The translations under genes and the position numbers were made by a program. A stretch of DNA of 64,000 nt. Source: Saccharopolyspora rosea (GTDB lineage: Bacteria > Actinomycetota > Actinomycetes > Mycobacteriales > Pseudonocardiaceae). Below, piece by piece: positions 18,709 to 51,042 of the stretch (position 1 is the first letter of the stretch; each line of letters starts with the position of its first letter). The stretch covers positions 5,146,001-5,210,000 of the forward strand of contig NZ_CP102826.1 of the NCBI RefSeq assembly GCF_025643595.1, written 5' to 3'. The notes beneath the pieces are model-generated. The model was given only the letters and a program-made list of their open reading frames with translations, did no database searches and had not been told where the DNA came from.

Positions 18709-18824
18709 CTCAGAGCCCGTCTTCGGACTCGTTGTGCGCAGCGGTGCCGGTTGCGAGACCACTCACCGAAAGAGAAAGCGGCTCACGCCGCTTACTCGGT
18801 ACCAGGTTGAAGACGGGCTCTCAG
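18709..18824. repeat. Intergenic inverted-end repeat, copy A, at the ftsQ end
   Basis: A 116-bp unit with 16-bp ends (18709-18724 and 18809-18824) that match at 15 positions as inverted repeats, AGAGCCCGTCTTC being common to both. The core 18741-18793 is shared with the copies at 35127-35179 and 50960-51012. On the minus strand the core is a hairpin (arms AAGCGG / CCGCTT) followed by TCTCTTTC, terminator-like for ftsQ. The ftsQ stop codon is part of the right end. Confidence 0.8.
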
Positions 18825-19567
18825 GCCACCGTCGGCAGGGACGGCGCCGTGACGTCGTAGACGCTGCCGGGTCGGGTCAGCAGCGGGGGCAGGATGGCCG
18901 CCTTGCGGTCCGATTCGTCGGTGTCGCCCCACTGGACCTCGCGGTCGCCCTTCAGCCGCAGGTGGATGTCACCCGGGTCCTGGGCGTCCACCGCGAGCAC
19001 GTCCGCGCGCAGCGCCGGGGGCAGGGCGGTGAGCACGGTCATCGCCGCCCGGGTGGCCGGGTCGTCCGGGGCCACCCGGCGGACGTGGAGTTCCGGCAGG
19101 TCGGCGGGCGGGTCCTTGACCACCTGGAACGGCACGCCGGCGGAGTCGACGAGCTGGATGCCGTCGCGCGCCACCAGGAACGCCGCCGGGGCGCGTTCGG
19201 TGACCTCGACCCGCACGGTCGTCGGCCAGGACAACGAGACCCGGACATCGGCGACCTTGCGGATCGCCCGCAGCCGGGACGCCACGTCCTCGGTGTCGAC
19301 CCGCAACATCGGCGTGCCCGGATCGATGCCCGCGGTCCGCACGATCTCGTCCTGGGAGAGCGTCCGGTTGCCGGTGACCTCCACCGCCCGCACGCCCAGC
19401 AGCGGCGTGAAGTACAGGACCAGGGCGAGCACCGTCACCACCGCGAGCGCGGCGGGGAGCACCCAGCGCCGCCACCACGGCACGGCGCCCGCGCCGCCGC
19501 GCACCGGCCTGCCCCGGGTGCTGCGCAGCCCGGGGCGGTTGGCGCCGCGGCGGCGGGTGGTGGTCAC
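18821..19567 (-). CDS. ftsQ: Cell division protein FtsQ
   Basis: Bitopic divisome protein that links early and late division proteins with FtsL/FtsB. The 248 residues comprise a basic cytoplasmic tail, one membrane helix at about residues 35-53 ([18 protein letters not shown]), the POTRA domain beginning [18 protein letters not shown], and the beta domain. The GTG start overlaps the murC stop as GTGA. It is the last gene of the murE-to-ftsQ operon; normally ftsZ would come next, but repeat A and the 17-kb island intervene. Confidence 0.95.
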
Positions 19568-21021
19568 CGCTCCCCCGCGGTCCTGCGGTCGACTTCGGCG
19601 AGGATCTCCGGTCCGAGCATCGTGACGTCACCGGCACCCATGGTCACCACCACGTCGCCGGGCCGGACCAGGCCCGCGACCCGCGGTGCGGCCTCGGTCA
19701 AGGACGGTTCGAAGTGGACGCGTTCCGCAGGCAGCGGCACCGCGTCGGCGATGAGCTCGCCGGTGACGCCGGGCTGCGGGTCCTCCCGCGCGCCGTAGAC
19801 GTCGAGGACCACGACCTCGTCGGCGAGGCCGAGCGCGGCGGCGAACTCGCCCGCGAACGCCGCGGTGCGGGAGAACAGGTGCGGCTGGAACACCACGACC
19901 AGCCTGCCCGCGCCGACGACCGGCCGGGCCGCGCGCAACTGGGCGTCCACTTCGGTCGGGTGGTGCGCGTAGTCGTCGTAGACGCGGACGCCGTCCGCGC
20001 GGCCCTTGAACTCGAAACGCCGCCGCACGCCGCCGAACGCGGCCAGGCCGTCGAGCAGTTCGCGCAGCGGGGCGCCGAGTTCCAGTCCGGCCAGCAGCGC
20101 GGCCACCGCGTTGCCCGCCATGTGCTCGCCGGGCACGGACACCTGCACGTCGATCCGCTCCCCGCCGAGGTCCACCGCGGCCACGCCGGTGCCGTGCTCG
20201 GGCCGGTAGCCGACCAGCCGCGCGTCGCCGGCGCCGGAGACCGCCTTGCCGTAGCGGCGCACCCGCACCCCGGCGGCCTCGGCCCGGTCGGCGAGCCCGG
20301 CGGCGCCCGGGTCGTCGGCGCAGGCGATGAGCACCCCGCCCGGTTCGATGCGCTCGACGAACTCGGCGAAGACGCGGGTGTAGTTCTCCTCGGTGCCGTG
20401 GTGGTCCAGGTGGTCGGGTTCGACGTTGGTCACCACCGCCACCGACGGCGCGAACACCAGGAACGAGCCGTCGCTTTCATCGGCCTCGGCGACGAAGATC
20501 CCGCCGTCGCCGTGGTGCGCGTTGGCGCCCGACTCGTTGAGGTCGCCGCCGATCGCGAACGACGGGTCGAACCGGCAGTGCTGCAACGCCACGGTGAGCA
20601 TCGACGTGGTGGACGTCTTGCCGTGCGTGCCCGCCACGCACGCGACCCGGTGGCCGGCCATCAGCGCCGCCAGCGCCTCGGCGCGGCGCAGCACCGGGAT
20701 GCCGCGGCGCTGCGCCTCCGCCAGCTCCGGGTTGTCCGGTTTGATCGCCGTGGACACCACGATCGCGGTGGGGGCGTCGGCGAACTGCTCCAGGTTCTCG
20801 GCGCGGTGGCCGATGGCGACGTGCGCGCCTTGGGCGCGCAGCGCCATGACCGTGCGCGAGTCCCGCGCGTCCGAACCGGACACCTCTTCGCCGCGGGCCA
20901 GCAGGATCCGCGCGATGCCGCTCATCCCCGCCCCGCCGATGCCGACCAGGTGCACCCGGGTCAGCAGTGCCGGGTCCGCGACGGCCCCGGTCGGTGGGAC
21001 GCCGGTCACTTCGGCCTTCAC
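19564..21021 (-). CDS. murC: UDP-N-acetylmuramate--L-alanine ligase MurC
   Basis: Adds the first amino acid, L-Ala, to UDP-MurNAc in the cytoplasm, using ATP. The 485-residue protein has the N-terminal UDP-binding [17 protein letters not shown], the ATP loop [13 protein letters not shown], and the family segment [11 protein letters not shown] near residue 345. The GTG start (21019-21021) overlaps the murG stop as GTGA. Confidence 0.97.
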
Positions 21022-22196
21022 CGTCCGGCCACCTCCAGAACGATCTGCGCCAGCACGCGGTCCGCTTCGCGGTGCCCGCTGCTCAGCGTCGCCGTGCTCA
21101 TCGCCTGCAACCGCTGGACGTCCAGCGCCAGCGGCAGGACCTCGTCGATCACCCGCTGCGGGGTCATCTGGTCGTCGGGGACCAGCCGGGCACCGCCCGC
21201 GGACACCACCGGCTGCGCGTTGAGCGCCTGTTCGCCGTTGCCGTGCGGCAGCGGCACGAAGATCGCGGGCAGCCCGACCGCGGAGACCTCGGCGACGGTC
21301 ATCGCCCCGGACCGGCACACCACCAGGTCGGCCGCCGCGTAGGCGAGGTCCATCCGCTCCAGGTACGGCACGGCCGCGTATCCCGGGGCGCCGGGGACCT
21401 GCTGGACCGCGAGGGTGTTCTTCGGTCCGTGCGCGTGCAGCACGCCGATCCCGGCGCGGCCCAGGGCTTCCGCGGCACCGGAGAACGCCGTGTTCAGCGT
21501 GCGGGCGCCCTGCGAACCGCCGAACACCAGGACGGTCGGCGCGTGCGGGTGCAGGCCGAAGAACGCCCGGGCCTGCGCGCGCAGCGCGAACCGGTCCAGG
21601 CTGGTGATGGACTCCCGCAGCGGGATGCCGATGGTGCGCGCTCCGGCCAGCCCGCTGTCCGGGGTGGCCGCGAGGACGCGTTCGGCGAACCGCGCGCCCA
21701 CCTTGTTCGCCAGTCCGGCGCGGGCGTTGGCCTCGTGCACCACGATCGGCACCCGACCGCGCGCCGCGAGGTAGGCGGGCAGCGACACGTAGCCGCCGAA
21801 GCCGACCACCACGTCGGCACCCACCCGGTCCAGCACGTCGCGCGTCTGGCGCACCGACTCGCGCACCTTCAGCGGCAGCTTCAGCAGCTCCGGGCTGGCC
21901 TTGCGGGGCATCGGCACCGGCGGGATCAGCTCCAGCGGGTAGCCGCGGGCCGGGACCAGCCGGTTCTCCAGCCCGCGTTCGGTGCCCAGCGCGGTGACCC
22001 GCGCGTCCGGCCGCATCCGGCGGACCGCGTCGGCCAGCGCCAGCGCGGGCTCGACGTGCCCGGCGGTGCCGCCCCCGGCGACCACGATCGACAGCGGCGG
22101 CCGACCGGGCTGGGCGGCCCCGGGCCAGGCCGCGGGAGCGGGCGGCGGGTTGGCGCCCGGCGTGCGGTCGATGCGGACCGTCTGCTCCCCGCTCAA
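21018..22196 (-). CDS. murG: UDP-GlcNAc transferase MurG
   Basis: Membrane-associated GT28 glycosyltransferase that converts lipid I into lipid II. Motifs include [15 protein letters not shown] (near residue 35), [26 protein letters not shown] and the donor-site [14 protein letters not shown] start at 22194-22196 is preferred because GAGGAGG lies 7 bp upstream and the codon overlaps the ftsW stop (TTGA); no ATG or GTG is available nearby in frame. The product is 392 residues, with an N-terminal extension rich in Pro and Ala before the first Rossmann strand. Confidence 0.95.
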
Positions 22197-23578
22197 CGGT
22201 GTCCTCCTCGTGTCTGCGTCCGGGCCCGGGGACCGCTGCGCGCGCGTCGGTCCCCGCTGCCCCGGCGGGTGGCCGCCGCGCCGGAGCTCTTGGAGCCCGG
22301 CCGGCTCGATGATGTCGTGGGCCGCGCCGAGCGCCGTCGGGCCGGCGGGCGGTACGGGGCCGGGGTGGGCAGTCGCAGCAGCTTGCCCACCTTGCCCGGC
22401 CCCAAAGACCGTAGCGCGGCGATCGCCTCGGGTTCGTGCCGGGCGAAGTTCGCCAGCAGCCCGAACACCAGCATGCTGGTGACCACGGAGGACCCGCCGG
22501 AGGAGATCAGCGGCAGCGGCAGCCCGGTCGTGGGCAGCAGGCCCACCACGTAGCCGATGTTGATGACGGCCTGCCCCACCAGCCACACCGTCAACGTCGC
22601 CGACACCAGCCGGATCCACGGGTCGGTGTTGCGGGTGGCGATCCGCATCCCCACGTAGGCGGAGGTGCCGAACAGCACGAGCACGATCGCGCAGCCGACG
22701 AAGCCGAGTTCCTCGCCGATGACGGCGAAGATGAAGTCGTTGTGCACGTTGGGCAGGTACTGCCACTTCGACCAGCCCTGCCCGAGGCCGCGGCCGAACA
22801 GCCCGCCGTCGGCCAGCGCGTACAGCGCCTGCATCGACTGGTAGCCGTGGCCGCTGGGGTCGGTGCCCGGGTTCAGGAACGTGGTCAGCCGCGCGAGCCG
22901 GTAGGACGCGACGACGGACAGCACCACGCCGCCGGTGAGCCCGCCCAGCAACAGCACGGCGAACAGCCGCAGCGGCGCGCCCGCGAACCACAGCAGCGCC
23001 AGCAGCACGAGGAACAGCGTGACCGTGGAGCCCAGGTCGGGCTGCAGCATGACGAGGGTGAACATCAGCAGGGCCGCCGGGACGAGCGGCACGAGCAGGT
23101 GCCGGTACTGGGCGATCAGCGCGCGTTTGGTGACCAGCACGTGCGCGCCCCACAGCGCGAACGCGACCTTCGCGAACTCCACCGGCTGGAAGGACACCCC
23201 GGCGACCACGAACCAGCTGCGCGCCCCGTTGAGCTCGGTGCCCAGCGGGGTGAGCACGGCGACCAGCAGTCCGACGCAGCCCAGCAGCAGCGCGAAGCTG
23301 AACCGGCGGATCAGCTTCACCGGCACGCGCAGCGCCAGGTAGAACAGCACCAGCCCGGCCCCGCAGTACATGACCTGCTTGCTGAACACGCTGTAGGACG
23401 ACCCGTCCTTGTTGAAGGAGTCCACACTGGACGCCGACAGCACCATGACGAGCCCGAACACCGTCAGCAGCCCGAACACGGCCAGCAGCAGGTGGAACGA
23501 CGCCAGCGGCCGGGTCAGCCACGCGGTCAGCGGCGTCAGCGCGCCGCGGCGCCTGGTGGTCTTGGTCGCGGTGGCCAC
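22193..23578 (-). CDS. ftsW: SEDS-family peptidoglycan polymerase FtsW
   Basis: Polytopic glycosyltransferase that polymerises lipid II at the septum together with FtsI. The 461-residue product has about ten membrane segments and SEDS motifs including [26 protein letters not shown] and the C-terminal [13 protein letters not shown] basic Ser/Arg-rich cytoplasmic tail of about 70 residues follows. GTG 23576-23578 is the probable start ([12 protein letters not shown]). MurD ends 7 bp upstream. Confidence 0.96.
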
Positions 23579-23585
23579 CGGTCGA

Positions 23586-24983
23586 TCACCCGCCGTTGAC
23601 CGGGGTGGGCGCCTCGGCCAGCACGGCGCGCACCGCGTCGGCGAACGCGCGCCCCCGGTGCGCGTAGTCGGTGAACATGTCCATCGACGCGGCCGCCGGG
23701 GCGAGCAGGACCACCGATCCCGGGCGGGCGAACTCGGTCGCCGTGCGGACGGCTTGCAGCATGCCCGCATCGTCTCCCGCGGTGACCTCCCGCACCGGCA
23801 CATCCGGGGCGTGTCGGGCCAACGCGGCGGCGAACCGGTCGCGGTCGCGGCCCAGCAGCACCACCGCCTCCAACCGGTCGGCGTTGGCCGCCACGAGGTC
23901 GTCCACCTCGGCACCCTTGAGCAGTCCGCCCGCGATCCACACCACGCGGGGGTGGGCGCGCAGCGCGGCGTCGGCGGCGTGCGGGTTCGTCGCCTTCGAA
24001 TCGTCCACATAGGACACACCGGCGGCCTCGGCGACCGGGACCGACCGGTGCGCCCCGGGTTCGAAGGCGCGCAGCCCGGCGGCGACCGCGGCCGCGTCGA
24101 CGCCGTACGCGCGGGCGAGCGCCGCGGCGGCCAGCGCGTTCGCGATGTTGTGCGGGCCGGCCGGGTGCACGTCGGCCAGCGACGCGAGGACCTCGCGCCC
24201 GCCGAACGCGCGGTCCACCAGGGACCCGTCGGCGACGCCGAGTTGCCCCTCCGCCGGAGCGCCGAGCGTGAACGACACGTGGCGGGCGCTCTCGGGCGCG
24301 GCGGCGGCCAGCCGCGTCGACCACCCGTCGTCGGCGTTGTGCACGGCGACCGCGTTGCCGCGGAACACCCGCGCCTTCGCCGCGCCGTAGGACTCCAGCG
24401 AGCCGTGCCAGTCCAGGTGGTCGGCGGCGAGGTTGAGCACCACGGCGGCGTGCGCGGCCACCGACTCCGACCAGTGCAGCTGGAAGCTGGACAGCTCCAC
24501 GGCGAGCACCCGGTGCCCGGCCCGGACCGCGTCCACCACGGGCAGGCCGACGTTGCCGCAGGCGACGACGTCGACCCCGGCGGCCCGCAGCACCGACGCC
24601 AGCATGCTCACGGTCGTCGTCTTGCCGTTGGTGCCGGTCACCGCCAGCCAGGTCGGCGGGTGGTCGGCGTCGGCGCCGAGCTGCCAGGCCAGCTCGACCT
24701 CGCCGATCACCTCGACCCCGGCCGCGGCGGCGGCCGTCAGCAGCGGCGCGTCCGGCCGCCAGCCCGGACTGGTGACCACCAGGTCGGTGCCCGCCGGCGG
24801 CTCGTCCAGACCCGGCACCAGCTCGGCGCCCTGCGCGCGCAGCGAAGCGAGCGCCGCGAGCCGGTCGGCGGAGCCGTCGGTGACCGTGACCGACGCGCCC
24901 GCGGCCAGCAGCGCCTCGGCCGCCGACCGGCCGGACACCCCGGCCCCGGCGACCAGCACCTCGCGCCCGTCGAACCGACCCAC
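23586..24983 (-). CDS. murD: UDP-N-acetylmuramoylalanine--D-glutamate ligase MurD
   Basis: Cytoplasmic ligase that adds D-Glu to UDP-MurNAc-L-Ala. The 465-residue protein shows VLVAGAGVSGRSAAEAL at the N-terminus, the ATP loop VTGTNGKTTTVSM, LNLAADHLDWHGS and the C-terminal DDSKATNPHA. The GTG start has GGGGAGG 8 bp upstream. It sits between mraY (44-bp gap) and ftsW. Confidence 0.97.
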   Translation of the reverse strand: MGRFDGREVLVAGAGVSGRSAAEALLAAGASVTVTDGSADRLAALASLRAQGAELVPGLDEPPAGTDLVVTSPGWRPDAPLLTAAAAAGVEVIGEVELAWQLGADADHPPTWLAVTGTNGKTTTVSMLASVLRAAGVDVVACGNVGLPVVDAVRAGHRVLAVELSSFQLHWSESVAAHAAVVLNLAADHLDWHGSLESYGAAKARVFRGNAVAVHNADDGWSTRLAAAAPESARHVSFTLGAPAEGQLGVADGSLVDRAFGGREVLASLADVHPAGPHNIANALAAAALARAYGVDAAAVAAGLRAFEPGAHRSVPVAEAAGVSYVDDSKATNPHAADAALRAHPRVVWIAGGLLKGAEVDDLVAANADRLEAVVLLGRDRDRFAAALARHAPDVPVREVTAGDDAGMLQAVRTATEFARPGSVVLLAPAAASMDMFTDYAHRGRAFADAVRAVLAEAPTPVNGG

Positions 24984-25027
24984 CGCGTTGCCTCCCCGTC
25001 GTCGTCGGCCCCTGCGGCCCTGGCGGA

Positions 25028-33052: not shown

Positions 33053-34771
33053 TCAGTGCCCGTCCCGCGGCACGGCGCTGCCGGACTTGCCGACGAGGAA
33101 GTCGAGGTCCGCCCCGTCGGACGCCTGGAGGACGTGGTCGTAGTACAGCCGCTGCCAGCCCCGCGGGTACGGGTTGTCCGGGTCCTTCCAGTCCGCGCGG
33201 CGGCGGCGCATCTCGGCCTCGTCGACTTCCAGGTCCAGGCGGCGGTTCGGGACGTCGAGGCTGACGATGTCGCCGGTGCGGACGAACGCGAGCGGGCCGC
33301 CGACGGCGGCTTCGGGGGTGACGTGCAGGACGACCGTGCCGTAGGCGGTGCCGCTCATCCGGCCGTCGGAGATCCGCACGACGTCGTCGACGCCGCGGTC
33401 CTGGAGCTTCTTCGGGACGGGCACGTTGGCGACCTCGGGCATGCCGGGATAGCCCTTCGGGCCCGCGTTGCGGATGATCAGCACGGTGTTCTCGTCGACG
33501 TCGAGGTCGTCGTCCCGGCACACCGCGTAGTACTCGTCGACGTCCTCGAAGACCATCGCCGGTCCGCGGTGGCGCAGCAGGCGGGGTGAGGCCGCGGACT
33601 GCTTGATCACCGCGCCGTCGGGCGCGAGGGTACCGCGCAGCACCGCGGTACCCGTCCCGACGGGCTGGAACGGCGCGTCGAACGACGTGATGACCTCGCG
33701 GTTGTGCACCTCGGCGTCGGCGATGTTCTCGCCGACCGTCCGCCCGGAAACCGTGGGGGCCGAGGTGTCCAGCAGGTCGCCGAGTTCCTTCATCACCGCG
33801 GGGAGCCCACCCGCGTAGCAGAAGTCCTCCATGAGGAACTCGCCGCTGGGCATCAGGTTGACCAGGGTGGGCACGTCGCGGGCGTCGCGGTCGAAGTCGT
33901 CGACGGTGAGGTCGACCCCGACCCGCTTGGCGATGGCGATGAGGTGCACGACGGCGTTGGTCGAGCCGCCGATCGCCGCGTTGACGCGGACGGCGTTGCG
34001 GAACGCCTCGCGGGTGAGCAGGTCGGACGGTTTGAGGTCCGCGGCCACCATCTCGACGATGCGCCGACCGGTCTGCTGCGCGGTCGCGTAGCGGCGGGCG
34101 TCCACGGCGGGCCAGGACGCGGCGTAGGGCAGCTGCATGCCCAGCGCCTCGACGACGCAGGCCATGGTCGAGGCGGTGCCCATGGTCATGCAGTGACCGT
34201 TGGAGCGGGACATGCAGCCCTCGATGAAGTAGCACTCCTCCTGCGTGATCCGACCGGCGACGAGGTCGGCCTCGGCCTGCCAGACCGCGGTGCCCGAACC
34301 GATGTCGGTGCCCCGGTACTTGCCGTTGAGCATCGGGCCGCCGGTGAGCATCACCGCGGGCAGGTCGACGCTGGCGGCGGCCATGAGCAGGCCGGGCGTC
34401 GTCTTGTCGCAGCCGGACAGCAGGACCACGCCGTCCAGCGGGTTGGCGCGGATGGTCTCCTCGGCCTGCATGGCCAGCAGGTTGCGGTACAGCATCGCGG
34501 TGGGGCGCATCAGCGTCTCGCCGAGCGCCATGTTGGGGAATTCCAGGGGGAATCCGCCCGCCTGCCACACGCCGCGCTTGACCGCCTCGGCGATCCGCTG
34601 CTGGTGGGCGTTGCACGGTGCGAGTTCGGACCACGTGGTCCCGATGCCGATGACGGGCCGGCCGTCGAAGACCTCGTCGCTGTAGCCCTGGTTCTTGACC
34701 CAGGAGCGGGCGTTCATGCCCGCGCGGCCGTGCGCGGCGAACCAGTGCGCGCTGCGCCCTGAGGTGCCCAT
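33053..34771 (-). CDS. IlvD/Edd-family dehydratase, sugar-acid (L-arabinonate) type
   Basis: Iron-sulfur dehydratase of 572 residues. The three cluster cysteines are visible in ELAPCNAHQ, LSGCDKTTPG and IEGCMSRSNGH. The sequence (VWQAGGFPLEFPNMALGET, GGPMLNGKYRGTDIGSG) matches the sugar-acid branch with [2Fe-2S] clusters, such as L-arabinonate dehydratase, better than the branched-chain enzyme IlvD proper. The ATG (34769-34771) has GGAGGAG 9 bp upstream. An inverted repeat AATACC/GGTATT lies 60 bp upstream. The gene converges with the toxin-immunity operon and lies in the island between ftsI and murE; no other sugar-acid gene is near. Confidence 0.85.
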   Translation of the reverse strand: MGTSGRSAHWFAAHGRAGMNARSWVKNQGYSDEVFDGRPVIGIGTTWSELAPCNAHQQRIAEAVKRGVWQAGGFPLEFPNMALGETLMRPTAMLYRNLLAMQAEETIRANPLDGVVLLSGCDKTTPGLLMAAASVDLPAVMLTGGPMLNGKYRGTDIGSGTAVWQAEADLVAGRITQEECYFIEGCMSRSNGHCMTMGTASTMACVVEALGMQLPYAASWPAVDARRYATAQQTGRRIVEMVAADLKPSDLLTREAFRNAVRVNAAIGGSTNAVVHLIAIAKRVGVDLTVDDFDRDARDVPTLVNLMPSGEFLMEDFCYAGGLPAVMKELGDLLDTSAPTVSGRTVGENIADAEVHNREVITSFDAPFQPVGTGTAVLRGTLAPDGAVIKQSAASPRLLRHRGPAMVFEDVDEYYAVCRDDDLDVDENTVLIIRNAGPKGYPGMPEVANVPVPKKLQDRGVDDVVRISDGRMSGTAYGTVVLHVTPEAAVGGPLAFVRTGDIVSLDVPNRRLDLEVDEAEMRRRRADWKDPDNPYPRGWQRLYYDHVLQASDGADLDFLVGKSGSAVPRDGH

Positions 34772-35084: not shown

Positions 35085-35376
35085 CTCAGTGCCTGTCTTT
35101 GAACCTGCTCCCGGAACACACGTGGCAAGCGGCGCCAGCCGCTTTCTCTTTCGGTGAGCGGTCTCGCCGCTGGCACCGCCGCGGGTTCTCAGCGGCCGTC
35201 TCGCGAGGACAGCCCCGACGCTGTGTATTGGGCATACATGAGTCGGGGCTCCCGGAGCCGAGACGGCCGCTGAGGTTCCGCTCCCGGCACCGCCACGCAC
35301 AACGAGTTCGAAGACAGGCACTGAGGTTCCGGCACCGGCACCGCCACCCAAAAAGAGTCCGAAGACAGGCGCTCAG
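35085..35376. repeat. Composite intergenic inverted-end repeat, copy B, at the ftsI end
   Basis: The left end CTCAGTGCCTGTCTTTGAAC (35085-35104) pairs with 35306-35325 (19 of 20) and more weakly with a tandem extra end at 35357-35376 (17 of 20 between the two right ends). The core at 35127-35179 is the conserved 53-bp segment. A second unit with its own perfect 16-bp ends is nested at 35188-35274. The ftsI stop codon lies within the outermost right end. Confidence 0.8.
35188..35274. repeat. Nested 87-bp unit with perfect inverted ends
   Basis: CTCAGCGGCCGTCTCG (35188-35203) and its exact inverse (35259-35274) enclose a second inverted pair AGCCCCGAC / GTCGGGGCT (35211-35219, 35242-35250). 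The end motif recurs at 16478-16495 beside the LysR gene. It encodes nothing and looks like a small hairpin-forming unit inserted in copy B. Confidence 0.7.
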
Positions 35377-37223
35377 TGGACCTGCAGGGTCTGCACCGGT
35401 GCCGGCTCCTTCGACAACGGGATCTGGTACCGCTGCGTCAGGTACTGCGCGATGTCGTGGAACAGCGGCGTGGCCGTGGTCGACTCGTGCACCCCCGCCG
35501 ACGGGGCGTCCAGCATGATGCCGACGACGAACCGCGGGTTCTGCGCGGGCACCATCCCCGCGAAGGTGATCCAGTACTTCGACTGGCTGTAGCACCCGCA
35601 CGTGGGGTCGATCTGCTGCGCGGTGCCGGTCTTGCCGGAGATCTGGTAACCCTCCAGCGCAGCGTCGGGGCCGGTGCCGCGCTGCCCCGGAGCGTCCTGC
35701 ACCACCCCGCGCAGCATGTCCCGCACGGTCTGCGCGGTCTGCGGGCTGACGACCCGCACTCCCCGCGGGTGCGGGCGCTCCACCTTGGTGCCGTCCGGCC
35801 GGATCTCGCCGGAGATCACCCGCGGCGGCACGCGCACCCCGTCGTTGGCGATGGCCTGGTACATCCCGGCCATCTGGAGCACGGTCATCGAAAGCCCCTG
35901 CCCGATCGGCAGGTTCGCGAACGTCGAACCAGACCAGTTGCTGCGCGGCGGCAGGCTTCCAGGGCTCTCCCCGGGCAACTCGATGCCGGTCTTCTGCCCC
36001 AGCCCGAACTTGTGCGCCAGGTCGTTCCACCGGTCCGGTCCGAGCTGCTGCGAGACCATCAGGGTGCCCACGTTGGACGACTTGCCGAGCACACCGGTGA
36101 AGGTCAGCGGGAGGGTGCCGTGCTGCCAGGCGTCCCCGACGGTCCGGTCGGCGACCTTGATCGACCCGGGGACCTGGAGCACGGTGTCGGGCCGGACGAT
36201 GCCGTTCTCGATCGCCCCGGCCGCGGTGATCACCTTGTTCACCGAGCCCGGCTCGTACGGGGTGGTGACCGCGGGGTTGCCGATGTTCGGCCCCCACTTC
36301 GGTGCGCCGGGGTCGAAGGTCTTGTCGTTGGCGAGCGCGTACACCTCGCCGGTCTTGGCGTCGAGCACGACCGCGCTGCCGTCCTTGGCACCGGCTTTCG
36401 CCGTGTAGTCGCTGAGCGCGTGCTGCACCACGTACTGCAGGTCGGAGTCGATGGTCAGCTCCACGCTGGAACCCGGCGTGGCGGGCTCCAGTTCGCGCTC
36501 GGTGCCCGGGATGGTCAGGTTGGAGCTGCCCATGGCGGTGTCGGAGATCTTGACGCCGTCCTTGCCCGCCAGCACCGGGTCCATCGAGTTCTCCAACCCG
36601 ATCAACCCGCGGATCTTGCGCTCGTCCATCCGCCAGTTCGCGGCGCCGATGATGTTCGCCCCCACGTCCCCGGCCGGGTACTGGCGGACGGCCCGGTACT
36701 CGGAGCCGATCTGCGGGTACTTCTCGGTGATCTGCCGGGCCTTGCTCGGGTCGATCTGCGGTCCGAAGTAGGTGAACGAGGCGTCCTTGAACAGCGCGTC
36801 GAGCACTTCCTGCTCGGAGATCTGCCCGGCCAGCACCTGGGCGACGTAGTGCGCGATCTGCCGCTTCTTCTGATCGGCGGTGGGTTTCGTCGGGTCCTTG
36901 GCGTGCTCCTTGTTCTGCTCGTCGGTCAGCATCCGCGGGTTCGCGTAGAGCTGCCGGGCCTCGGTGCTGAACGCGAGCACGTTGCCGTCGCGGTCGAGGA
37001 AGGAGCCGCGCTCGGCGGGGATCGAGTCCTTGGTGATGCGCTGCTTCTCGGACTCCGCGGACAGCGCGCTGGCCCTGACGCCCTGCACCCACACCAGCTT
37101 GCCACCGGCGATCACCAGCGTGATCACCATCAGCAACCGCACGATGCCGAGCCGCCGGTCGCTGCCCGCGACGTCGGTCCGCGCGGTGCGCCGCCCGACC
37201 AGGCGGGTGCCCTTCCGGGCCAT
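35373..37223 (-). CDS. ftsI: Septal penicillin-binding protein FtsI (PBP3, class B)
   Basis: Transpeptidase that cross-links septal peptidoglycan as partner of FtsW. The 616-residue protein has a cytoplasmic tail, one membrane helix (about 27-45), a pedestal domain (PAERGSFLDRDGNVLA) and the catalytic domain with PGSVNKV (SxxK Ser), KSSNVG (SxN) and SGKTGTAQQ (KTG). The ATG overlaps the ftsL stop by one base (TGATG). The stop is embedded in repeat copy B, and murE is 6 kb further along rather than adjacent. Confidence 0.96.
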   Translation of the reverse strand: MARKGTRLVGRRTARTDVAGSDRRLGIVRLLMVITLVIAGGKLVWVQGVRASALSAESEKQRITKDSIPAERGSFLDRDGNVLAFSTEARQLYANPRMLTDEQNKEHAKDPTKPTADQKKRQIAHYVAQVLAGQISEQEVLDALFKDASFTYFGPQIDPSKARQITEKYPQIGSEYRAVRQYPAGDVGANIIGAANWRMDERKIRGLIGLENSMDPVLAGKDGVKISDTAMGSSNLTIPGTERELEPATPGSSVELTIDSDLQYVVQHALSDYTAKAGAKDGSAVVLDAKTGEVYALANDKTFDPGAPKWGPNIGNPAVTTPYEPGSVNKVITAAGAIENGIVRPDTVLQVPGSIKVADRTVGDAWQHGTLPLTFTGVLGKSSNVGTLMVSQQLGPDRWNDLAHKFGLGQKTGIELPGESPGSLPPRSNWSGSTFANLPIGQGLSMTVLQMAGMYQAIANDGVRVPPRVISGEIRPDGTKVERPHPRGVRVVSPQTAQTVRDMLRGVVQDAPGQRGTGPDAALEGYQISGKTGTAQQIDPTCGCYSQSKYWITFAGMVPAQNPRFVVGIMLDAPSAGVHESTTATPLFHDIAQYLTQRYQIPLSKEPAPVQTLQVH

Positions 37224-38799: not shown

Positions 38800-39019
38800 G
38801 GCGGTCCCTCCCTCCCGCGTGCCAATCGGATGTGCACCGGTAGCCCGGCGCGCGGGCCGACGGCTGCGGTCCCGCGCGCGTGGTAACTCCGGTATTCCCC
38901 CATTGCGCCGGATCTCGTCAGGTCCCCGCCCGCCCGTCGCGTCCTGGTGCCGGGGAAGATGCACCAGGCGAGCGATAGCCGAGCGGACCGAGGCCTCACG
39001 AAACCCGGACGAGGTCTCC

Positions 39020-40997: not shown

Positions 40998-40999
40998 TC

Positions 41000-44505: not shown

Positions 44506-44543
44506 CCCGCCGCGACGGCAGGGACCTCGCCCCGGACACACGA

Positions 44544-44583: not shown

Positions 44584-44593
44584 GAGAAAACCG

Positions 44594-44998
44594 CTACTGC
44601 TCGAAGCGCTTGCGGAAGCGCTCCTCCATGCGCTGGGCGAAGGAGCTGCGGGTGCGACCGGGACCGCCCCGGCGTCCGGTTCCACCGCGGTCGGGAGCCG
44701 ACTCCCCGTCCGCCCCGCCGCCGCGCAGCGCGGACAGGGCGAGCACCGCTCCGGCGAACATCACGAGGAAGCCGACCACGCTCACCACCGGGATATCGGC
44801 CGGTTTGACCGGTATCACCAGGCCGAGGACCAGCATGGCCAGCCCCAGCACGAAAACGGCCGCTCCTTGGAGCCGCCGACGCCTGGAGGGGCGGTGCAGT
44901 CGTCCTCCGCGCACGGTGGAGGCGAATTTGGGGTCCTCGGCGTAGAGCGCGCGCTCGATCTGGTCGAGCAGTCGCTGCTCGTGCTCGGAGAGTGGCAT
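44594..44998 (-). CDS. DUF3040 membrane protein
   Basis: Protein of 134 residues typical of actinobacteria: conserved start MPLSEHEQRLLDQIERALYAEDPKFAS, two adjacent membrane helices (about 45-65 and 70-90) and a basic Arg/Gly-rich tail. Function is unknown; the gene is regularly found near the dcw cluster. The ATG has GGAGGAG upstream. Confidence 0.9.
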   Translation of the reverse strand: MPLSEHEQRLLDQIERALYAEDPKFASTVRGGRLHRPSRRRRLQGAAVFVLGLAMLVLGLVIPVKPADIPVVSVVGFLVMFAGAVLALSALRGGGADGESAPDRGGTGRRGGPGRTRSSFAQRMEERFRKRFEQ

Positions 44999-45165
44999 GG
45001 CTCCTCCTCCGGCACAGGTCTCTCAGTGGCGCCGGAGACCGCGGAAGGCGGCCTGCCTCCGCTGGTGGCCCGGCGAACGCTTGGGGGCGTCCCCTTCGAG
45101 GATACGGTTCCGGACACGCGAGGACTACCCGGTCCCCGAACCGGACCTGTGCGAGGTTGCCGACA

Positions 45166-45906: not shown

Positions 45907-45999
45907 GGTGAGCAGCGTAATGCCGGGTCGCGGAGCCGCTTCACGGGCGTGCGGATCACCATCTGCCAAACAGCGGCTCGTGCACCGCCGCCGGTTCCG

Positions 46000-46005
46000 T
46001 AGGCT
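46000..46005 (+). promoter_or_regulatory. Probable -10 element of the ParA-like gene (leaderless)
   Basis: TAGGCT ends 7 bp before the GTG start codon, the distance expected for a transcript that begins at the start codon. No ribosome site is present before the GTG, which fits a leaderless mRNA. No good -35 was seen. Confidence 0.5.
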
Positions 46006-46012
46006 ACGACCC

Positions 46013-46846
46013 GTGCAGACGGTGGCAGTGCTGAGTCTCAAGGGTGGCGTGGGCAAGACGACCGTGGTGCTCGGTCTCGCCTCGGCGGCCATGCGCCGCG
46101 GGGTGCGCACGCTCGTCGTCGACCTCGATCCGCAGTGCAACGCGACCGCGTGCCTGGAGCCGGAGCGGACCGGCAAGGGGATCAGCGACGTGCTCGCCGA
46201 TCCCCGTCCGGACGTGGTGCGCGCGGCGATCACCGGCAGCGCGTGGGGTGACGAGGTCGACGTCCTGGTCGGGTCCGAGGACGCCGAGAGCCACAACGGC
46301 AACCACCCGGAACGCACCCTGACCCGCCTCACCGAGGCACTGTCCGAACTGGACGATCTGATCGCCGACGGCGAACTGCCGTACCAGCTGGTGCTGTTGG
46401 ACTGCCCGCCGTCGCTGGGACGACTCACCCGGTCCGCGCTGGTGGCCGCCGACCGGGCGCTGCTGGTCACCGAACCGACGATCTTCGCCGTGTCCGGCGT
46501 GCAGCGCGCCTTCGAGGCGGTGCAGACCGAGCGGGAGTCGAACAACCCGCGGCTGCAGCCGCTCGGCGTGATCGTCAACCGGGTCCGGCCGCGCTCGCAC
46601 GAGCACCAGTTCCGCATCGAGGAGTTGCGGGAGATCTTCGGACCGCTGGTCATGCCGGTGGCGTTGCCCGACCGGCTGGCCGTGCAGCAGGCGCAGGGCG
46701 CCTGCCTGCCGATCCACCAGTGGGGAACCCCCGGCGCGCGGGAGGTCGCGCTCGCGTTCAACCTGGTGCTCGCCCGCACGCTGCGCGCCGGCCGGTCCCG
46801 CCCGTTCGACGAGGACGACGAGGACGAGCCGGACGACTCGGAATGA
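46013..46846 (+). CDS. ParA/MinD-family ATPase
   Basis: Deviant Walker ATPase of 277 residues: VLSLKGGVGKTTVVLGLA at the N-terminus, VVDLDPQCNAT (switch) and LVLLDCPPSLGRLT. It ends in an acidic tail. Such stand-alone ParA-like proteins of actinobacteria are of unknown function, possibly in positioning or septum-related partitioning; no parB is adjacent, so a chromosome-partition role is not supported. Four bases follow before the Nei gene region. Confidence 0.9.
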   Translation: MQTVAVLSLKGGVGKTTVVLGLASAAMRRGVRTLVVDLDPQCNATACLEPERTGKGISDVLADPRPDVVRAAITGSAWGDEVDVLVGSEDAESHNGNHPERTLTRLTEALSELDDLIADGELPYQLVLLDCPPSLGRLTRSALVAADRALLVTEPTIFAVSGVQRAFEAVQTERESNNPRLQPLGVIVNRVRPRSHEHQFRIEELREIFGPLVMPVALPDRLAVQQAQGACLPIHQWGTPGAREVALAFNLVLARTLRAGRSRPFDEDDEDEPDDSE

Positions 46847-46859
46847 GGGGGTGCGCACC

Positions 46860-47639
46860 CTGCCCGAGGGCGACACCGTCTTCCTGACCTGCCACCGCCT
46901 GCACGAGGCGCTGGCCGGGCACCGGCTCGTCCGCGGCGAGCTGCGCCACCCACGTCTGTCCACACTGGACCTCGCGGGCAGGTCGGTGCGCGAGGTCCGC
47001 CCGGCGGGCAAGCACCTGCTGATCCGGTTCGACGACGGCCACACGCTGCACAACCACCTGCGCATGGACGGCGCCTGGCACCTGTACGGCCCGGCGGGGA
47101 GGTGGCGCCGACCGGCCCACCAGGTGCGGGCGGTCCTCGCCACCGAACGGCAGGTCGCGGTCGGCTTCAACCTGCACGACCTGCGCTGGCTGCCGACGGC
47201 CGAGGAGCCGCGCGTGATCGGCCACCTGGGTCCGGACCTGCTGGCGGCGGACTGGGACGACGACCACGAGGCGGAGGCGGTGCGGCGCCTGACCGCCGAC
47301 CCGGACCGGGAACTGGGGCTCGCGCTGCTCGACCAGTCCGTCGTCGCCGGTCTCGGCAACATCTACCAGACCGAGGTGTGCTTCCTCATCGGACGGTCAC
47401 CGCGGACCCGCGTCGCCGACGTCGACGCCCACCGCGTCGTCCGCCTCGGCCGGGAGCTGTTGCTGCGCAACGCCTGGCACCCGGAGCAGTCCACGACGAA
47501 GAGCCTGCGCCCGGGAACCCGGCACTGGGTCTACGGGCGCCGCACCTGCCTGCGCTGCGGCGGACCGGTGCACCGCGCGACGCAGGGCCGCGACCCCGGC
47601 TCCCGCGTCAGCTACCACTGCCCGCGCTGCCAGCCCTGA
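46860..47639 (+). CDS. nei: Fpg/Nei-family DNA glycosylase, probable CTG start
   Basis: DNA glycosylase/AP lyase (Nei2 type) that removes oxidised pyrimidines. The enzyme family uses Pro2 as Schiff-base nucleophile and Glu3; the expected N-terminus PEGDTV is present but preceded by a CTG (46860-46862), while the nearest conventional start is a GTG three codons upstream that would bury the proline. A CTG start, with GAGGGGGT about 10 bp upstream, gives 259 residues and Met-Pro-Glu. The H2TH region (LLDQSVVAGLGNIYQTEVCF) and the C-terminal zinc finger (CLRCGGPV...CPRC) are intact. If the GTG is used the product would be inactive unless processed. Confidence 0.9.
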   Translation: MPEGDTVFLTCHRLHEALAGHRLVRGELRHPRLSTLDLAGRSVREVRPAGKHLLIRFDDGHTLHNHLRMDGAWHLYGPAGRWRRPAHQVRAVLATERQVAVGFNLHDLRWLPTAEEPRVIGHLGPDLLAADWDDDHEAEAVRRLTADPDRELGLALLDQSVVAGLGNIYQTEVCFLIGRSPRTRVADVDAHRVVRLGRELLLRNAWHPEQSTTKSLRPGTRHWVYGRRTCLRCGGPVHRATQGRDPGSRVSYHCPRCQP

Positions 47640-48904
47640 CGCCGGGAGCGGACGTCGGCGAGGCGCCGCAGCATCGGGTAGAGCAGGACGATCCCGACCG
47701 ATCCCCAGACCACTCCGGTCACCCGCAGGTCGCCGACGGACAGCGTCAGGTCCCCGACGCCGGCGATGATCGCCGTCCCGAGCACCGCCAGGTTCACCGG
47801 ATCAGCGAAGTCCACTCCGGACCCGAGCCAGATCCGCACGCCGACCAGCGCCAACAACCCGAACAGCACGAGCGTCGCGCCGCCGAGCACGCCGAGCGGA
47901 ACAGTGTTGATCAGCGCGGTCAACTTCGGCGAGAACGACAGGACCACCGCCGCCAACGCGGCGACCGCGCACGCCGCGGTCGAGTACACGCGCGTCGCGG
48001 CCATGGCACCGATGTTGGCGGCGTTGCTGGACAGCGCCGCCCCACCAGCCGACCCGGACATGGCGGTGGCCAGGCCGCCGCCGATCAGCGCGTCCCCGAC
48101 GTGCGGGTCGAGGTTGCGACCGCTCATCGCGGCGACCGCCTTGACGTGCCCGACCTGTTCGGCGACCAGCACGATCGCCAGCGGCAGCACGTACGGCATC
48201 ACCGACAGGTGCACCTGGGGCGCCACGAGTTCCGGGAGTCCGAGCCACGGCGCGTCCCGCAGGGCAGCCACCCGGGTGGGGTCGAGTTGTCCGGACACCG
48301 CGGCGCAGCCCCAACCGACGAGCACGCCGACCAGCACGGCCAGCCGAGCGGGCATCCCGCGGCTGACCACGGTGAGCAGCACGACGGTCCCGAGCGTCAC
48401 CGCCGCCGGGACCGGTTGCGCGTCGAACGAGGACACCGACTGCGGCGCGAGGCTCAATCCGATCATGAGCACGATCGCCCCGGTCACGACCGGCGGCATC
48501 GCGGCCTCCAGCAGCCGGACCCCCAGCGCCTTGACCGCCACCCCGACGCTGACCACGACCAGGCCGACGACCATGATCCCGCCGAGCAGCGCGGCCGGCC
48601 CCGCACCGGCCTTGTGCGCGGCGACGCCCAGCGGCACCACGAAGGACACCGACGCGCCCAGGTAGCTGGGCACCCGGTTGCGGGTGAGCAGCAGGAACAG
48701 CAGCGTCCCCACGCCCGACAGCAGCAGTGTCGTGGTGGCGGGAAATCCGGTCAGCAGTGGCACGAGCACGGTGGTGCCGAACATCGCCAGCAGGTGCTGC
48801 ACGCCGAAACCGATCGTCAGCGGCCAGCTCAACCGCTCCTCGGAGGCGACGATGGCACCGCCGCCCGGCGACCGACCGTCGCCGTGCACGGTCCACGACG
48901 CCAC
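47612..48904 (-). CDS. Uracil/xanthine permease (NCS2 family)
   Basis: Nucleobase transporter of 430 residues with about 14 hydrophobic segments. Motifs: QHLLAMFGTTVLVPLLTG near the N-terminus and GNIGAM-like SSNAANIGAMAATRV. The group is UraA/RutG-like. The GTG at 48902-48904 has GGGGGAGGACG upstream; an open frame extends to 49009 but lacks a site. Its 3' end overlaps the convergent nei gene by 28 bp. Confidence 0.92.
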   Translation of the reverse strand: MASWTVHGDGRSPGGGAIVASEERLSWPLTIGFGVQHLLAMFGTTVLVPLLTGFPATTTLLLSGVGTLLFLLLTRNRVPSYLGASVSFVVPLGVAAHKAGAGPAALLGGIMVVGLVVVSVGVAVKALGVRLLEAAMPPVVTGAIVLMIGLSLAPQSVSSFDAQPVPAAVTLGTVVLLTVVSRGMPARLAVLVGVLVGWGCAAVSGQLDPTRVAALRDAPWLGLPELVAPQVHLSVMPYVLPLAIVLVAEQVGHVKAVAAMSGRNLDPHVGDALIGGGLATAMSGSAGGAALSSNAANIGAMAATRVYSTAACAVAALAAVVLSFSPKLTALINTVPLGVLGGATLVLFGLLALVGVRIWLGSGVDFADPVNLAVLGTAIIAGVGDLTLSVGDLRVTGVVWGSVGIVLLYPMLRRLADVRSRRQGWQRGQW

Positions 48905-49063
48905 ATCGTCCTCCCCCGAACTGCCGACCGGGCGCGAACAGCGCCCACGGCGTGCAGTGACCGAACGAAGATTACACTTTCGCATCACACGATCAAGCCA
49001 CCGCCGCACCCGGATCGCGGGAGTCCGCGTCGACCAGCGGTGATGCCCGCGCGGGCGTGTCGC

Positions 49064-49879
49064 TCAGGGCCGCGGTTCGCCGCCGAACAGTTCGCGGAGC
49101 CCGGCCGCGAGTCCGGCCAGCCGATCGGTCGCGTCCTGGAGCAGGTGCGCCTGCTCGGTGCTGCCGCTGGCGGCCACCGCCCGTCCGGCCGCCGCGACCA
49201 GTCGCCCGTAGCCCTCGACGCCCTCGTCGAGTTCCGCGCGCAGCCGGTCCGCGTCCGCATGCAGCTCGGCCCGCTCCGCGGCCGGCGCGTGCGGCGCCGC
49301 CTCCTCGACGGCCACCAGCCGGTCGGCGCCCCGCCGCAGCTCGACCGCCGCGGAGTCCGCGGTGCGCCGCGCATCGGCCGCGGCCTCACCGGCTCCGGCG
49401 CTGGTCAGCTGGACCAACGCCCGGTGCAGGCTCTGCTCGGCGTCGCGCAGCCGCCGCATCGGTTCGCGGGCTCGCGAGTCCTGCGGCGGCAGCTCCACCG
49501 GCTGCGGCGGCGCTTCGGGCAGCGGCGCCTTCCTGAGCTTCCAGTACCTGGTGCCGGCACCGACCGCACCGACACCCGCGGCCACGGCGATGCCACCGAG
49601 CCCGAAGGTGGCGAATTCCTGGACGCCGTGCGCCCAGCTGCCCCACATCTCCCACAGCCCGGGCGCGGTCGCCGACGTGTAGGCGCCCGCACCGAACACC
49701 CCGGCGGTCACGGCGCTGCCGGTCGCGGCGCGCTTGGCCCGTCTGCGCTGCCTCAGCAGCCGGGCCCGCGGATCCCGCCACCGCGCGAGCGTGCGGCGCA
49801 CCTCGGTGAGGACCGGACCGCGCAATTGTTCCAGCGCGGCCTCGCCCCACTGCGCGAGTTCGTTGCGCCGCGACCGCAC
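49064..49879 (-). CDS. PspM-like membrane protein (Rv2743c family)
   Basis: Protein of 271 residues with two membrane helices (about 55-75 and 88-108) and a long charged helical C-terminal domain. In mycobacteria the gene after clgR and pspA (Rv2743c, PspM) encodes a membrane partner of PspA in the envelope-stress response; order and topology match, though sequence conservation is low. The GTG start has only a weak ribosome site. It lies 11 bp after pspA. Confidence 0.78.
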   Translation of the reverse strand: MRSRRNELAQWGEAALEQLRGPVLTEVRRTLARWRDPRARLLRQRRRAKRAATGSAVTAGVFGAGAYTSATAPGLWEMWGSWAHGVQEFATFGLGGIAVAAGVGAVGAGTRYWKLRKAPLPEAPPQPVELPPQDSRAREPMRRLRDAEQSLHRALVQLTSAGAGEAAADARRTADSAAVELRRGADRLVAVEEAAPHAPAAERAELHADADRLRAELDEGVEGYGRLVAAAGRAVAASGSTEQAHLLQDATDRLAGLAAGLRELFGGEPRP

Positions 49880-49890
49880 GTCGGACTCGT

Positions 49891-50727
49891 TCAGGCTTGA
49901 CCGGCTTGCGGGTTCTGCTGCTTCTGCTGCGTCGCCGGGTCAGCGGCTTCCTGGCCGCTGGTGACCTGCTGCTGTTGCCCGCCGGTCACCTGCTGCTGGT
50001 CGGAGCCGGATCCCATCGAGGCGCGCAGCTGGGCGAGTCGGCTGGCGCCCGCGGCGTCGATGGACGCCTGCTGGACCTCCATCATCCGGCCCTGCACGCT
50101 GTTCTGCGCCAACTCCGCCTCACCGAGGGCCGTGCTGTAGCGGCGCTCGATCTTGTCCCGGACCTCCTCCAGCGAGGGGGTGTTGCCGGGCGCGGCGATC
50201 TCGGTCATCTGCCGCAGCGACGAGGAGACCTGCTCCTGCATCTTGGCCTGCTCCAGCTGGCTGAGCAGCTTGGTGCGCTCGGCGATCTTCTGCTGCAACA
50301 CCTGGGCGTTGCGCTCGACCGCCTGCTTGGCCTGCTCGGCGGCCTGCAACGACTGGTCGTGCAGCGTCTTGAGGTCCTCCACGCCCTGCTCGGCGCTGAC
50401 CAGCTGGCTGGCCAGCTGCTGGGCGGTCTCCTCGTACTTCTGCGCCTTGGTCTCGTCGCCCTCGGCACGCGCCTGGTCGGCCATCACGAGCGCCTGCTTG
50501 GCCGACGATTGCAGCTTCTCGACCTCGCCGAGCTGGCGGTTGAGCTTCATCTCCAGCTGGCGCTGGTTGCCGATGACCGAAGCAGCCTGCTGGGAGAGAG
50601 CCTGGTGCTGCCGCTGGGCCTCCTCGATGGCCTGCTGGATCTGCACCTTCGGGTCGGCGTGCTCGTCGACCTTCGACGAGAACGACGCCATCAGGTACTT
50701 CCAGAACTTCACGAACGGATTGGCCAT
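49891..50727 (-). CDS. pspA: PspA/IM30-family envelope stress protein
   Basis: Coiled-coil ESCRT-III-like protein of 278 residues that protects the inner membrane. It begins with the amphipathic membrane-binding helix [19 protein letters not shown], followed by continuous coiled coil (about 25-225) and a Gln-rich tail with QQQVT repeats. The ATG has GGCGGAGG upstream. Downstream lies the PspM-like gene and upstream, after a 311-bp gap with repeat C, is clgR: the mycobacterial Psp order. Confidence 0.95.
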
Positions 50728-50943
50728 CTCCTCCGCCTGCCTTCTCTTCGCTGCTCAGCTGCCCCGGACACGGTCCGCCACGGGCACACCCACTGGTCCC
50801 ATCGTGTCAGGTCGCCGTGTCGGCTTCCACCAAGCCGGGGAGATCCGCGGGTTCCCCGCGCGAACCGAACCGCAAAAACCCGACGACCCGGACCACCAGG
50901 GTACGGTTCGTCCGGGTCGTCGGTTTCACAAGGTCAACAGCGA
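50728..50943. other. Upstream region of pspA
   Basis: The 216 bp between pspA and repeat C should hold the pspA promoter. It has no clear -35/-10 pair and no gene. Short inverted stretches around 50880-50930 (CGACGACCCGG with GGTCGTCGG-like inverse) could form a hairpin. Confidence 0.35.
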
Positions 50944-51042
50944 CTAGCGCGTGTTTTATCAGCGGCGGCAGCCGCTTTCTCTTTCGGTGAATGGTCTCGC
51001 AACCGGCACCGCCACGCAAAGCACTTCCGAAACACTCCCTAG
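50944..51042. repeat. Intergenic inverted-end repeat, copy C, at the clgR end
   Basis: The core (50960-51012) matches the cores at 18741-18793 (inverse strand) and 35127-35179. The ends are degenerate: CTAG-N3-GTGTTT at 50944-50956 pairs with the inverse at 51030-51042. The clgR stop TAG is part of the right end. It lies between pspA and clgR, where mycobacteria have none. Confidence 0.75.

What the first reader, a model, noticed from the sequence alone, without database searches (positions are those of the whole stretch)
18709..51042. A family of intergenic repeats with inverted GTCTTCGAAC-type ends and a shared 53-bp core
Three copies (18741-18793 on the minus strand, 35127-35179, 50960-51012) share a nearly identical 53-bp core: a hairpin (AAGCGGC / GCCGCTT) followed by TCTCTTTCGGTGA and GGTCTCGC, then GGCACCGC. 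A diverged fourth copy lies at 11341-11436, and end motifs alone occur at 16455-16495. Copies A, B and D have inverted ends around GTCTTCGAAC. No ORF or transposase is inside, so this looks like a non-autonomous mobile or REP-like unit, or a mobile terminator. I do not recognise it as a named family.
Basis: seen in the sequence. Interest (0 to 1): 0.8.

Follow-up and report, generated by a model that had tools for sequence, protein, structure and literature searches.

The report
Folded mobile repeat of Saccharopolyspora relatives

Summary
The 21-nt heart of the core occurs 186 times in this 6.56-Mb genome, against 9 for the reversed control. In this species most fetched copies are MITE-like: inverted ends GNGCCTGTCTTYGAAC, a TNA target duplication (35 of the 41 copies with TNA on both sides agree), and a resident IS5-family element with similar ends in 10 places, 9 of them inside copies of the repeat. 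A second end class carries CTAG. A covariance model of the unit matches 21 of 22 species of the genus (Saccharopolyspora), at least 60 times in 17, 12 of 46 genera of the family, and none but the own genome of 345 drawn from the class. Across 12 genera 31 of 43 base pairs show compensatory changes. The gap before ilvC is filled in 7 of 22 species and empty in 6. Ends vary, the folded interior does not: the reverse of a plain MITE. No Rfam match; five paper searches found no description. Mobility is well supported; the fold's role is not shown.

The parts
18713..18820 (-). Short-form copy (108 bp) with GAGCCCGTCTTC-type inverted ends; core 18741-18793; flanked by TCA on both sides, the right one (18821-18823) being the stop codon of the minus gene 18821-19567
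   Evidence: TCA/TCA read directly from the sequence
35089..35372 (+). Long-form copy (284 bp, with a repeated right end): inverted ends, short hairpin, complete folded unit 35124-35293, two right ends; flanked by TCA 35086-35088 and TCA 35373-35375 (stop codon of the penicillin-binding-protein (ftsI-like) minus gene 35373-37223)
50948..51038 (+). Short-form copy with the second end class: CTAG 50944-50947 and 51039-51042, ends GCGCGTGTTTT / AAACACTCC; CTA 51039-51041 is the TAG stop codon of the minus gene ending there
11335..11442 (-). Degenerate copy; left TGA (11332-11334) is the stop codon of gene 10066-11334; right flank CGA
16458..16493 (.). End-only remnant (GTTCGTCTTCGAAC plus part of the long hairpin's closing stem) directly after the TGA stop of gene 15564-16457
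35124..35293 (+). The conserved folded unit: short hairpin AAGCGGC/GCCGCTT, spacer, then long compound hairpin (stem CUCAGCGGNCGUCUCG/CGAGACGGCCGCUGAG, inner stem AGCCCCGAC/GUCGGGGCU, loop around UUGGNC)

Best explanation
A family of non-autonomous, folded, interspersed elements of the Pseudonocardiaceae. Shown: each long copy carries a ~170-nt interior with a conserved secondary structure; in the window's species most fetched copies carry IS5-type inverted ends and a TNA target duplication. Inferred: the transposase of the resident IS5-family element (277 aa, 9 intact copies) acts in trans on these ends and inserts the element at CTNAG sites; many such sites are gene stop codons, and the duplicated TNA restores the stop. 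Because the elements carry CTGAGG themselves they are also targets: copies nest in copies and the IS sits in them, which makes mosaic forms. Inferred: over time the interior is passed between different sets of ends (CTAG type, GNGCCTGTC type, GTTTTTC type), so that different insertion sequences move it, while selection keeps the interior. Best guess for that selection: the sense strand folds as a single strand, most likely RNA in transcripts that run through the element, and shields or processes neighbouring messages so that inserts between genes stay harmless.
For: Copy number 186 vs 9 control. TNA agreement: of 59 copies with one right end, 41 have TNA on both sides and 35 of these agree; with multi-end copies 36 of 47 (of 70) against 21.4 expected by shuffling, 0 of 10,000 shuffles as high. 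IS5-family transposase (PF13340, PF01609; NF033580); 9 intact copies plus 1 broken, 9 of 10 at the repeat's own GCCGCTGA|TGAGGTTCC site, the tenth also at CTGAGG (86). A gene stop codon lies exactly at an element end in 29 of 70 two-ended copies (59, recounted in 89); 79 of 174 CTNAG sites in gaps are stop codons, so target preference accounts for this. Genus: 21 of 22 species match the model, 17 of 22 with >=60 matches. Gap before ilvC: full unit in 7 of 22 species, no insert in 6, nearly identical flanks in G011 (empty) and G013 (filled). Covariation: 17 of 43 pairs on 24 sequences; 31 of 43 on 54 sequences, score 0.389 vs 0.118 shuffled and 0.05-0.07 slid; 29 of 43 on 111 distinct sequences of the genus, 107 of them not in the first set. 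Three orthologous copies in another genus (right flanks 91-94% identical over 1.5 kb) differ by 8, 2 and 6 double against 2, 0 and 1 broken pairs. Wobbles favour the sense strand: main-stem haplotypes hold 56 G-U vs 5 A-C in one set and 104 vs 25 in the other. Single-copy fold z = -9.4 and -9.3.
Against: Trans-mobilisation is inferred from ends and duplications only; 18 of 59 single-end copies lack TNA on one or both sides and 6 of 41 disagree. No insertion sequence with the CTAG-type right end at both ends was found. In 140 copies of other species no inverted ends were detected within 60 nt above control; with 250 nt of left flank (138 copies) only a small excess (8 vs 0.75 exact, 11 vs 5 one-mismatch 12-mers), so movement by inverted ends is demonstrated only for the window's species. 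No strand bias in own tandem gaps (27 vs 26) and an antisense excess in relatives (59 vs 25 after removing repeated copies) speak against a function that needs sense read-through. Compensatory changes in a DNA palindrome can also come from template switching between arms without selection. The wobble counts are not independent events, and the short hairpin shows no clear excess (2 G-U vs 5 A-C in one set, 9 vs 5 in the other). One relative's copy folds only at z = -2.6.
Confidence: 0.6

Rival explanations
1. An ordinary MITE family: only the ends matter, and the interior looks conserved because copies are recently amplified and arms of palindromes are homogenised by template switching.
For: Inverted ends, TNA duplication and partner IS; several double changes are C-G to G-C flips with few one-sided intermediates, as arm-to-arm copying would give.
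Against: Ends differ between species while the interior is shared by 12 genera. Specific non-palindromic positions are kept: the G-U and U-G pairs at the base of the long stem in 52 and 53 of 54 sequences, and stretches GCGAGGACAGC and GATCCCGNAG (65, 66). Template switching would be expected to erase the mismatched GUU/GUU site.
Confidence: 0.2
2. A mobile or domesticated transcription terminator or insulator that ends transcription from both sides.
For: 66 of 124 classifiable own copies lie between convergent genes against 44 of 323 gaps, and only 5 in divergent gaps against 98 of 323; strong hairpins on both strands.
Against: Residual gap length in convergent gaps is unchanged (median 62 vs 55.5 bp), so native 3' regions are still there; no orientation bias in the own genome; no T-tract seen after the long hairpin; some shared copies lie between co-directional genes.
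Confidence: 0.12
3. A target of an unidentified enzyme that moves the folded interior as single-stranded DNA, with IS ends acquired later in some species.
For: Interior constant, ends variable or not detected in other species; strand-asymmetric wobbles fit a single-stranded sense strand, RNA or DNA.
Against: No candidate enzyme found; the Y1/RAYT family PF01797 has no match in the own genome or in 12 more of 22 genus genomes. IS-type ends explain mobility in the own species.
Confidence: 0.08

Closest known systems
[quoted passage not shown]
   Same: Short, non-coding, inverted ends like those of a resident IS, TNA target duplication, nested insertion, high copy number, mostly between genes
   Different: The interior, not the ends, is what is conserved between species and genera; at least three end types occur on the same interior
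REP/BIME elements with RAYT
   Same: Many palindromic copies between genes, few between divergent genes; an IS that inserts into the repeat (recalled parallels: IS1397 and ISKpn1 in PU/BIME elements)
   Different: 170-nt compound structure rather than the 20-40 nt recalled for REPs; no PF01797 match in the own genome
ERIC, BOX, RUP, NEMIS and RU elements (recalled; PMC10969869 and PMC2229807 seen in search listings only)
   Same: Folded, intergenic, MITE-like repeats, modular in the case of BOX
   Different: No sequence relation was tested; recalled from other phyla
Structured noncoding RNA families of Rfam
   Same: Covarying multi-helix structure with conserved unpaired motifs
   Different: No Rfam 15 family matches the element, at gathering score in the window or up to E = 10 in 15 loci

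Membership tests
MITE (IS5-family-derived) | Terminal inverted repeats matching a resident IS | tested here: met
   Own species: first 14 bases GTGCCTGTCTTTGA shared by repeat and IS ends
MITE (IS5-family-derived) | Target-site duplication as for the IS | tested here: met
   TNA: 35 of 41 testable, of 59 single-end copies; IS copies flanked by TGA/TGA
MITE (IS5-family-derived) | Empty orthologous sites | tested here: met
   Gap before ilvC: 7 filled, 6 empty, 9 with shorter insert-like remnants of 22 species (by eye; filled ones confirmed by the model). Not shown for a copy of the window (one search gave no comparison)
MITE (IS5-family-derived) | Inverted ends present across the whole family | tested here: not met
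   140 copies of other species: no excess within 60 nt; small excess within 250 nt, 138 copies
MITE (IS5-family-derived) | Movement in trans by the IS transposase | not testable with these tools
   needs a transposition assay
REP/RAYT system | Cognate Y1 (RAYT) transposase in the genome | tested here: not met
   PF01797: no match in own genome, present in 9 of 22 genus genomes
Known Rfam RNA family | Match at the curated score | tested here: not met
Conserved structured RNA or ssDNA element | Compensatory changes beyond controls | tested here: met
   31 of 43 and 29 of 43 pairs; 0 of 500 shuffles reach the score in either set; alignments were fitted to the model
Conserved structured RNA or ssDNA element | Expressed as RNA | not testable with these tools
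   no RNA-seq held
Intrinsic terminator | Hairpin plus T-tract, oriented with upstream genes | tested here: not met
   T-rich stretch TCTCTTT follows the short hairpin in the own species but is not general in relatives; orientation 27 sense vs 26 antisense

The most novel reading that the evidence does not exclude
The folded ~170-nt interior is itself the unit of selection: a new kind of mobile structured RNA (or single-stranded DNA) element that survives for the age of a bacterial family by exchanging its ends, so that whatever insertion sequence is at hand moves it, while its own structure performs a function that its hosts or its movement require.
Probability: 0.25. Interest if true: 0.85.

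Novelty: new variant of a known kind. Interest (0 to 1): 0.7.

Why it matters
It is a high-copy repeat confined, as far as sampled, to one actinobacterial family (Saccharopolyspora and relatives), with a covarying structure that I did not find in Rfam 15 or in five searches of the held papers. If the interior is under selection independently of its ends, it separates cargo from vehicle in a bacterial repeat and makes it testable why folded elements such as ERIC, BOX and REP persist. Practically, long copies carry a predictable landing site for the resident IS5 element, and the copies form a repeat background for genome and expression work in antibiotic producers (recalled trait of the genus).

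Tried and rejected
Exact-core searches first suggested that the family was confined to one species (0-3 hits in each of 21 same-genus species; 0 exact hits in genome contigs). This was wrong: the core letters differ between species, and the covariance model found the family. RAYT as mobiliser: rejected. A partner IS for the CTAG-type ends: 36 right-end motifs found, no two facing each other at IS distance (the left-end motif was not searched genome-wide). Stop-codon preference as special targeting: rejected, since the CTNAG preference accounts for it (29 of 70 copies; 79 of 174 CTNAG gap sites are stop codons). Native terminators replaced by the element: not supported. Empty site for the window copy at 35 kb: the neighbouring dehydratase gene has no ftsI end within the 1.5 kb fetched in 17 relatives compared (4 more of 21 had only distant homologues), so no comparison was possible. 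Strand clustering along the chromosome: weak (runs z = -2.6 on 100 exact copies), not explained.

Papers: searches showed 15 of 716, 15 of 239, 20 of 27, 2 of 2 and 15 of 9,332 papers; I saw titles and starts of abstracts. Of PMC3610266 and PMC3827479 (S. erythraea transcriptome and sRNA papers) I saw only passages found by terms, none of which describes this repeat; their supplementary sRNA tables were not seen. So absence from print is not established.

Limits: model counts per genome are capped by scoring (128, 23 and 8 candidates) and searches used stricter filters; model E-values are rough; gene calls come from a simple codon-score script; alignments A2 and A3 were fitted to the model's structure; loci were best matches or exact-loop matches, not a random sample (80 of 97 pattern stretches were analysed). 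The baseline includes gaps that hold elements. Names of genes at shared sites: ilvC, acetolactate synthase small subunit, aroB, a shikimate kinase and an sdhA-type flavoprotein are; the gene before sdhA had no match and is not named.
Full report
OBSERVATION. The window is 5146001-5210000 of a single 6,562,638-bp contig. The 21-nt heart of the core has 186 hits with up to 3 mismatches in that contig, against 9 for the reversed pattern. In 97 fetched stretches (987,252 bases, window included) I found 131 copies at up to 4 mismatches, 115 with an exact 21-mer. The contiguous part of that sample, about 0.68 Mb, holds 17 copies, which agrees with the whole-genome count.

ANATOMY IN THE OWN GENOME. 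Most of these copies have inverted ends GNGCCTGTCTTYGAAC / GTTCRAAGACAGGCNC (left end found in 98 of 131 by a pattern with up to 3 mismatches). Seventy copies have both ends. Of 59 with a single right end, 41 have TNA on both sides, and 35 of these 41 agree; the other 18 lack TNA on one or both sides. Including copies with repeated right ends, 36 of 47 agree, against 21.4 expected, and 0 of 10,000 shuffles were as high. A smaller class (15 of 131 by the left-end pattern) has CTAG at the ends and GTGTTT-type inverted repeats on the same interior. In the window, copy 18713-18820 has TCA on both sides, the right TCA being the stop codon of the minus gene at 18821; copy 35089-35372 has TCA on both sides, the right one being the stop of the ftsI-like gene; copy 50948-51038 has CTAG on both sides, one overlapping a TAG stop. 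Overall an element end coincides with a gene stop codon in 29 of 70 two-ended copies. That is above the share of stop codons among all TNA sites in gaps (414 of 2163, p = 1.5e-5) but like their share among CTNAG sites (79 of 174, p = 0.55), so the CTNAG target explains it.

PARTNER. An IS5-family element (transposase 277 aa; PF13340 E = 1.2e-27, PF01609; NCBIfam NF033580) has ends GTGCCTGTCTTTGATCTTGGG that share the first 14 bases with the repeat. The genome holds 9 intact copies at 99-100% identity and one broken. Nine of the ten lie at one and the same internal site of a repeat copy (GCCGCTGA|IS|TGAGGTTCC), the tenth elsewhere, also at CTGAGG. Repeat copies without the IS show the uninterrupted site. 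That the transposase moves the repeat in trans is inference. No IS with the CTAG-type right end at both ends was seen (36 motifs, none facing at IS distance).

THE REAL UNIT. Aligning 16 long own copies with 8 hits from relatives gave a ~170-nt unit: a short hairpin, a spacer, then a long compound hairpin flanked by two GCACCGC direct repeats. RNAalifold finds 43 pairs, 17 with changes on both sides. The window copy folds at z = -9.4 (sense) and -9.3 (antisense); one relative's copy only at -2.6. Copies lacking the long hairpin, as two of the three in the window, keep one GCACCGC.

DISTRIBUTION. In the class only the own genome of 345 matched.

STRUCTURE IS CONSERVED, ENDS ARE NOT. On 54 sequences from 12 genera 95.9% of cells are paired, 31 of 43 pairs have changes on both sides, and the covariation score is 0.389 against 0.118 shuffled and at most 0.074 slid. 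On 111 distinct Saccharopolyspora sequences, 107 of them not in the first set: 29 of 43, 0.322 against 0.112. Three single copies in another genus are orthologous (right flanks 91-94% identical over 1.5 kb; the fourth species' copy lies elsewhere). They differ by 8, 2 and 6 double changes against 2, 0 and 3 one-sided and 2, 0 and 1 broken pairs; three ilvC-leader copies by 3, 6 and 6 double against 0, 5 and 5 one-sided and 1, 1 and 2 broken; two sdhA-leader copies by no double change and 1 broken pair. Unpaired stretches such as GCGAGGACAGC and GATCCCGNAG and the wobble pairs at the base of the long stem (52 and 53 of 54) are nearly fixed. By contrast, 140 copies from other species show no inverted ends within 60 nt above control; within 250 nt (138 copies) there is a small excess, with other end types such as GTTTTTCAWCCTGGT / ACGAGGTTGGAAAAAC.

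MOVEMENT AT AN ORTHOLOGOUS SITE. ilvC was found in 22 of 22 species. The gap between it and the acetolactate synthase small-subunit gene holds a full unit in 7 (G001, G002, G003, G012, G013, G016, G020; confirmed by the model), in G001 and G016 with other flanks; it is short and free of insert in 6 (G000, G009, G011, G018, G019, G021); the other 9 hold shorter insert-like remnants (by eye). G011 (empty) and G013 (filled) have nearly identical flanks.

SURROUNDINGS. In the own genome 66 of 124 classifiable copies (of 131) lie between convergent genes, 27 sense and 26 antisense in tandem gaps, 5 in divergent gaps; gaps of at least 80 bp in the contiguous sample are 44 convergent, 181 tandem and 98 divergent of 323 (this baseline includes gaps with elements). 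Relatives, after removing 3 repeated copies and 6 at locus edges from 140: 36 convergent, 25 sense, 59 antisense, 11 divergent of 131 (before removal). The length left in convergent gaps after subtracting the element (median 62 bp, 35 copies) is like that of 94 convergent gaps without one (55.5 bp). So elements are added DNA, tolerated at gene ends and rare between divergent genes. Selection against harmful insertions would give this too; it does not prove a function.

WHAT THE FOLD DOES. Of pairs that are not Watson-Crick, haplotypes of the main stem have 56 G-U against 5 A-C in one set and 104 against 25 in the other. This favours the sense strand acting as a single strand, RNA or DNA, though the events are not independent. 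The short hairpin shows no clear excess (2 vs 5, 9 vs 5). The lack of sense orientation in gaps argues against dependence on read-through. I commit to an RNA-level role that keeps neighbouring messages intact, at modest confidence.

KNOWN OR NEW. Rfam 15 gives no match to the element, and five paper searches found no description in the listings seen. It works like an IS5-type MITE in this species and sits in the genome like REP or ERIC elements, but it fails one MITE expectation (constant ends) and the REP/RAYT one (cognate enzyme).

Noticed in passing
own genome, e.g. L073:17400-17500, L009, L025: A second version of the long hairpin (CTCCGATGGGCACAGCGGCGCGTCAGCGCCTCC...GACGGGCGGG) replaces or precedes the usual one in many copies, and two alternative spacers (GYGGTCTCGC or GTACGCAAGC) follow the core: the elements are mosaics.
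   Followed up: partly
L264, L266, L201, L198: Some copies in S. shandongensis and S. elongata are flanked by copy-specific inverted repeats outside their own ends, as if inserted into the loop of an existing hairpin.
   Followed up: no
L296, L297, L298; L311: Four species of one other genus have a single match each; in three it is at the same place, so it may be a domesticated copy; in the fourth (L311) it lies elsewhere.
   Followed up: partly
L173, L176, L181 (before ilvC); L037, L040, L051 (before sdhA); L038, L039 (aroK-aroB type): Copies shared at the same place by several species, between co-directional metabolic genes, some being the best model match of their genome.
   Followed up: partly
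own genome, 1.6-2.0 Mb and 4.0-4.8 Mb: Weak clustering of copy orientation along the chromosome (runs test z = -2.6).
   Followed up: no
window 38900-39012: mraW RNA (RF01746), minus strand.
   Followed up: no
window 33053-34771: A dihydroxy-acid dehydratase-like gene sits next to the ftsI-like gene here; in 17 relatives compared no ftsI end lies within 1.5 kb of its homologue: a rearrangement next to a repeat copy.
   Followed up: no
L329, L331, L333, L336, L337: Short insert-like remnants (such as GCCTGTCGCCG...CGGCGGCAGGC) in the gap before ilvC of five species: apparently a smaller, related palindromic element.
   Followed up: no
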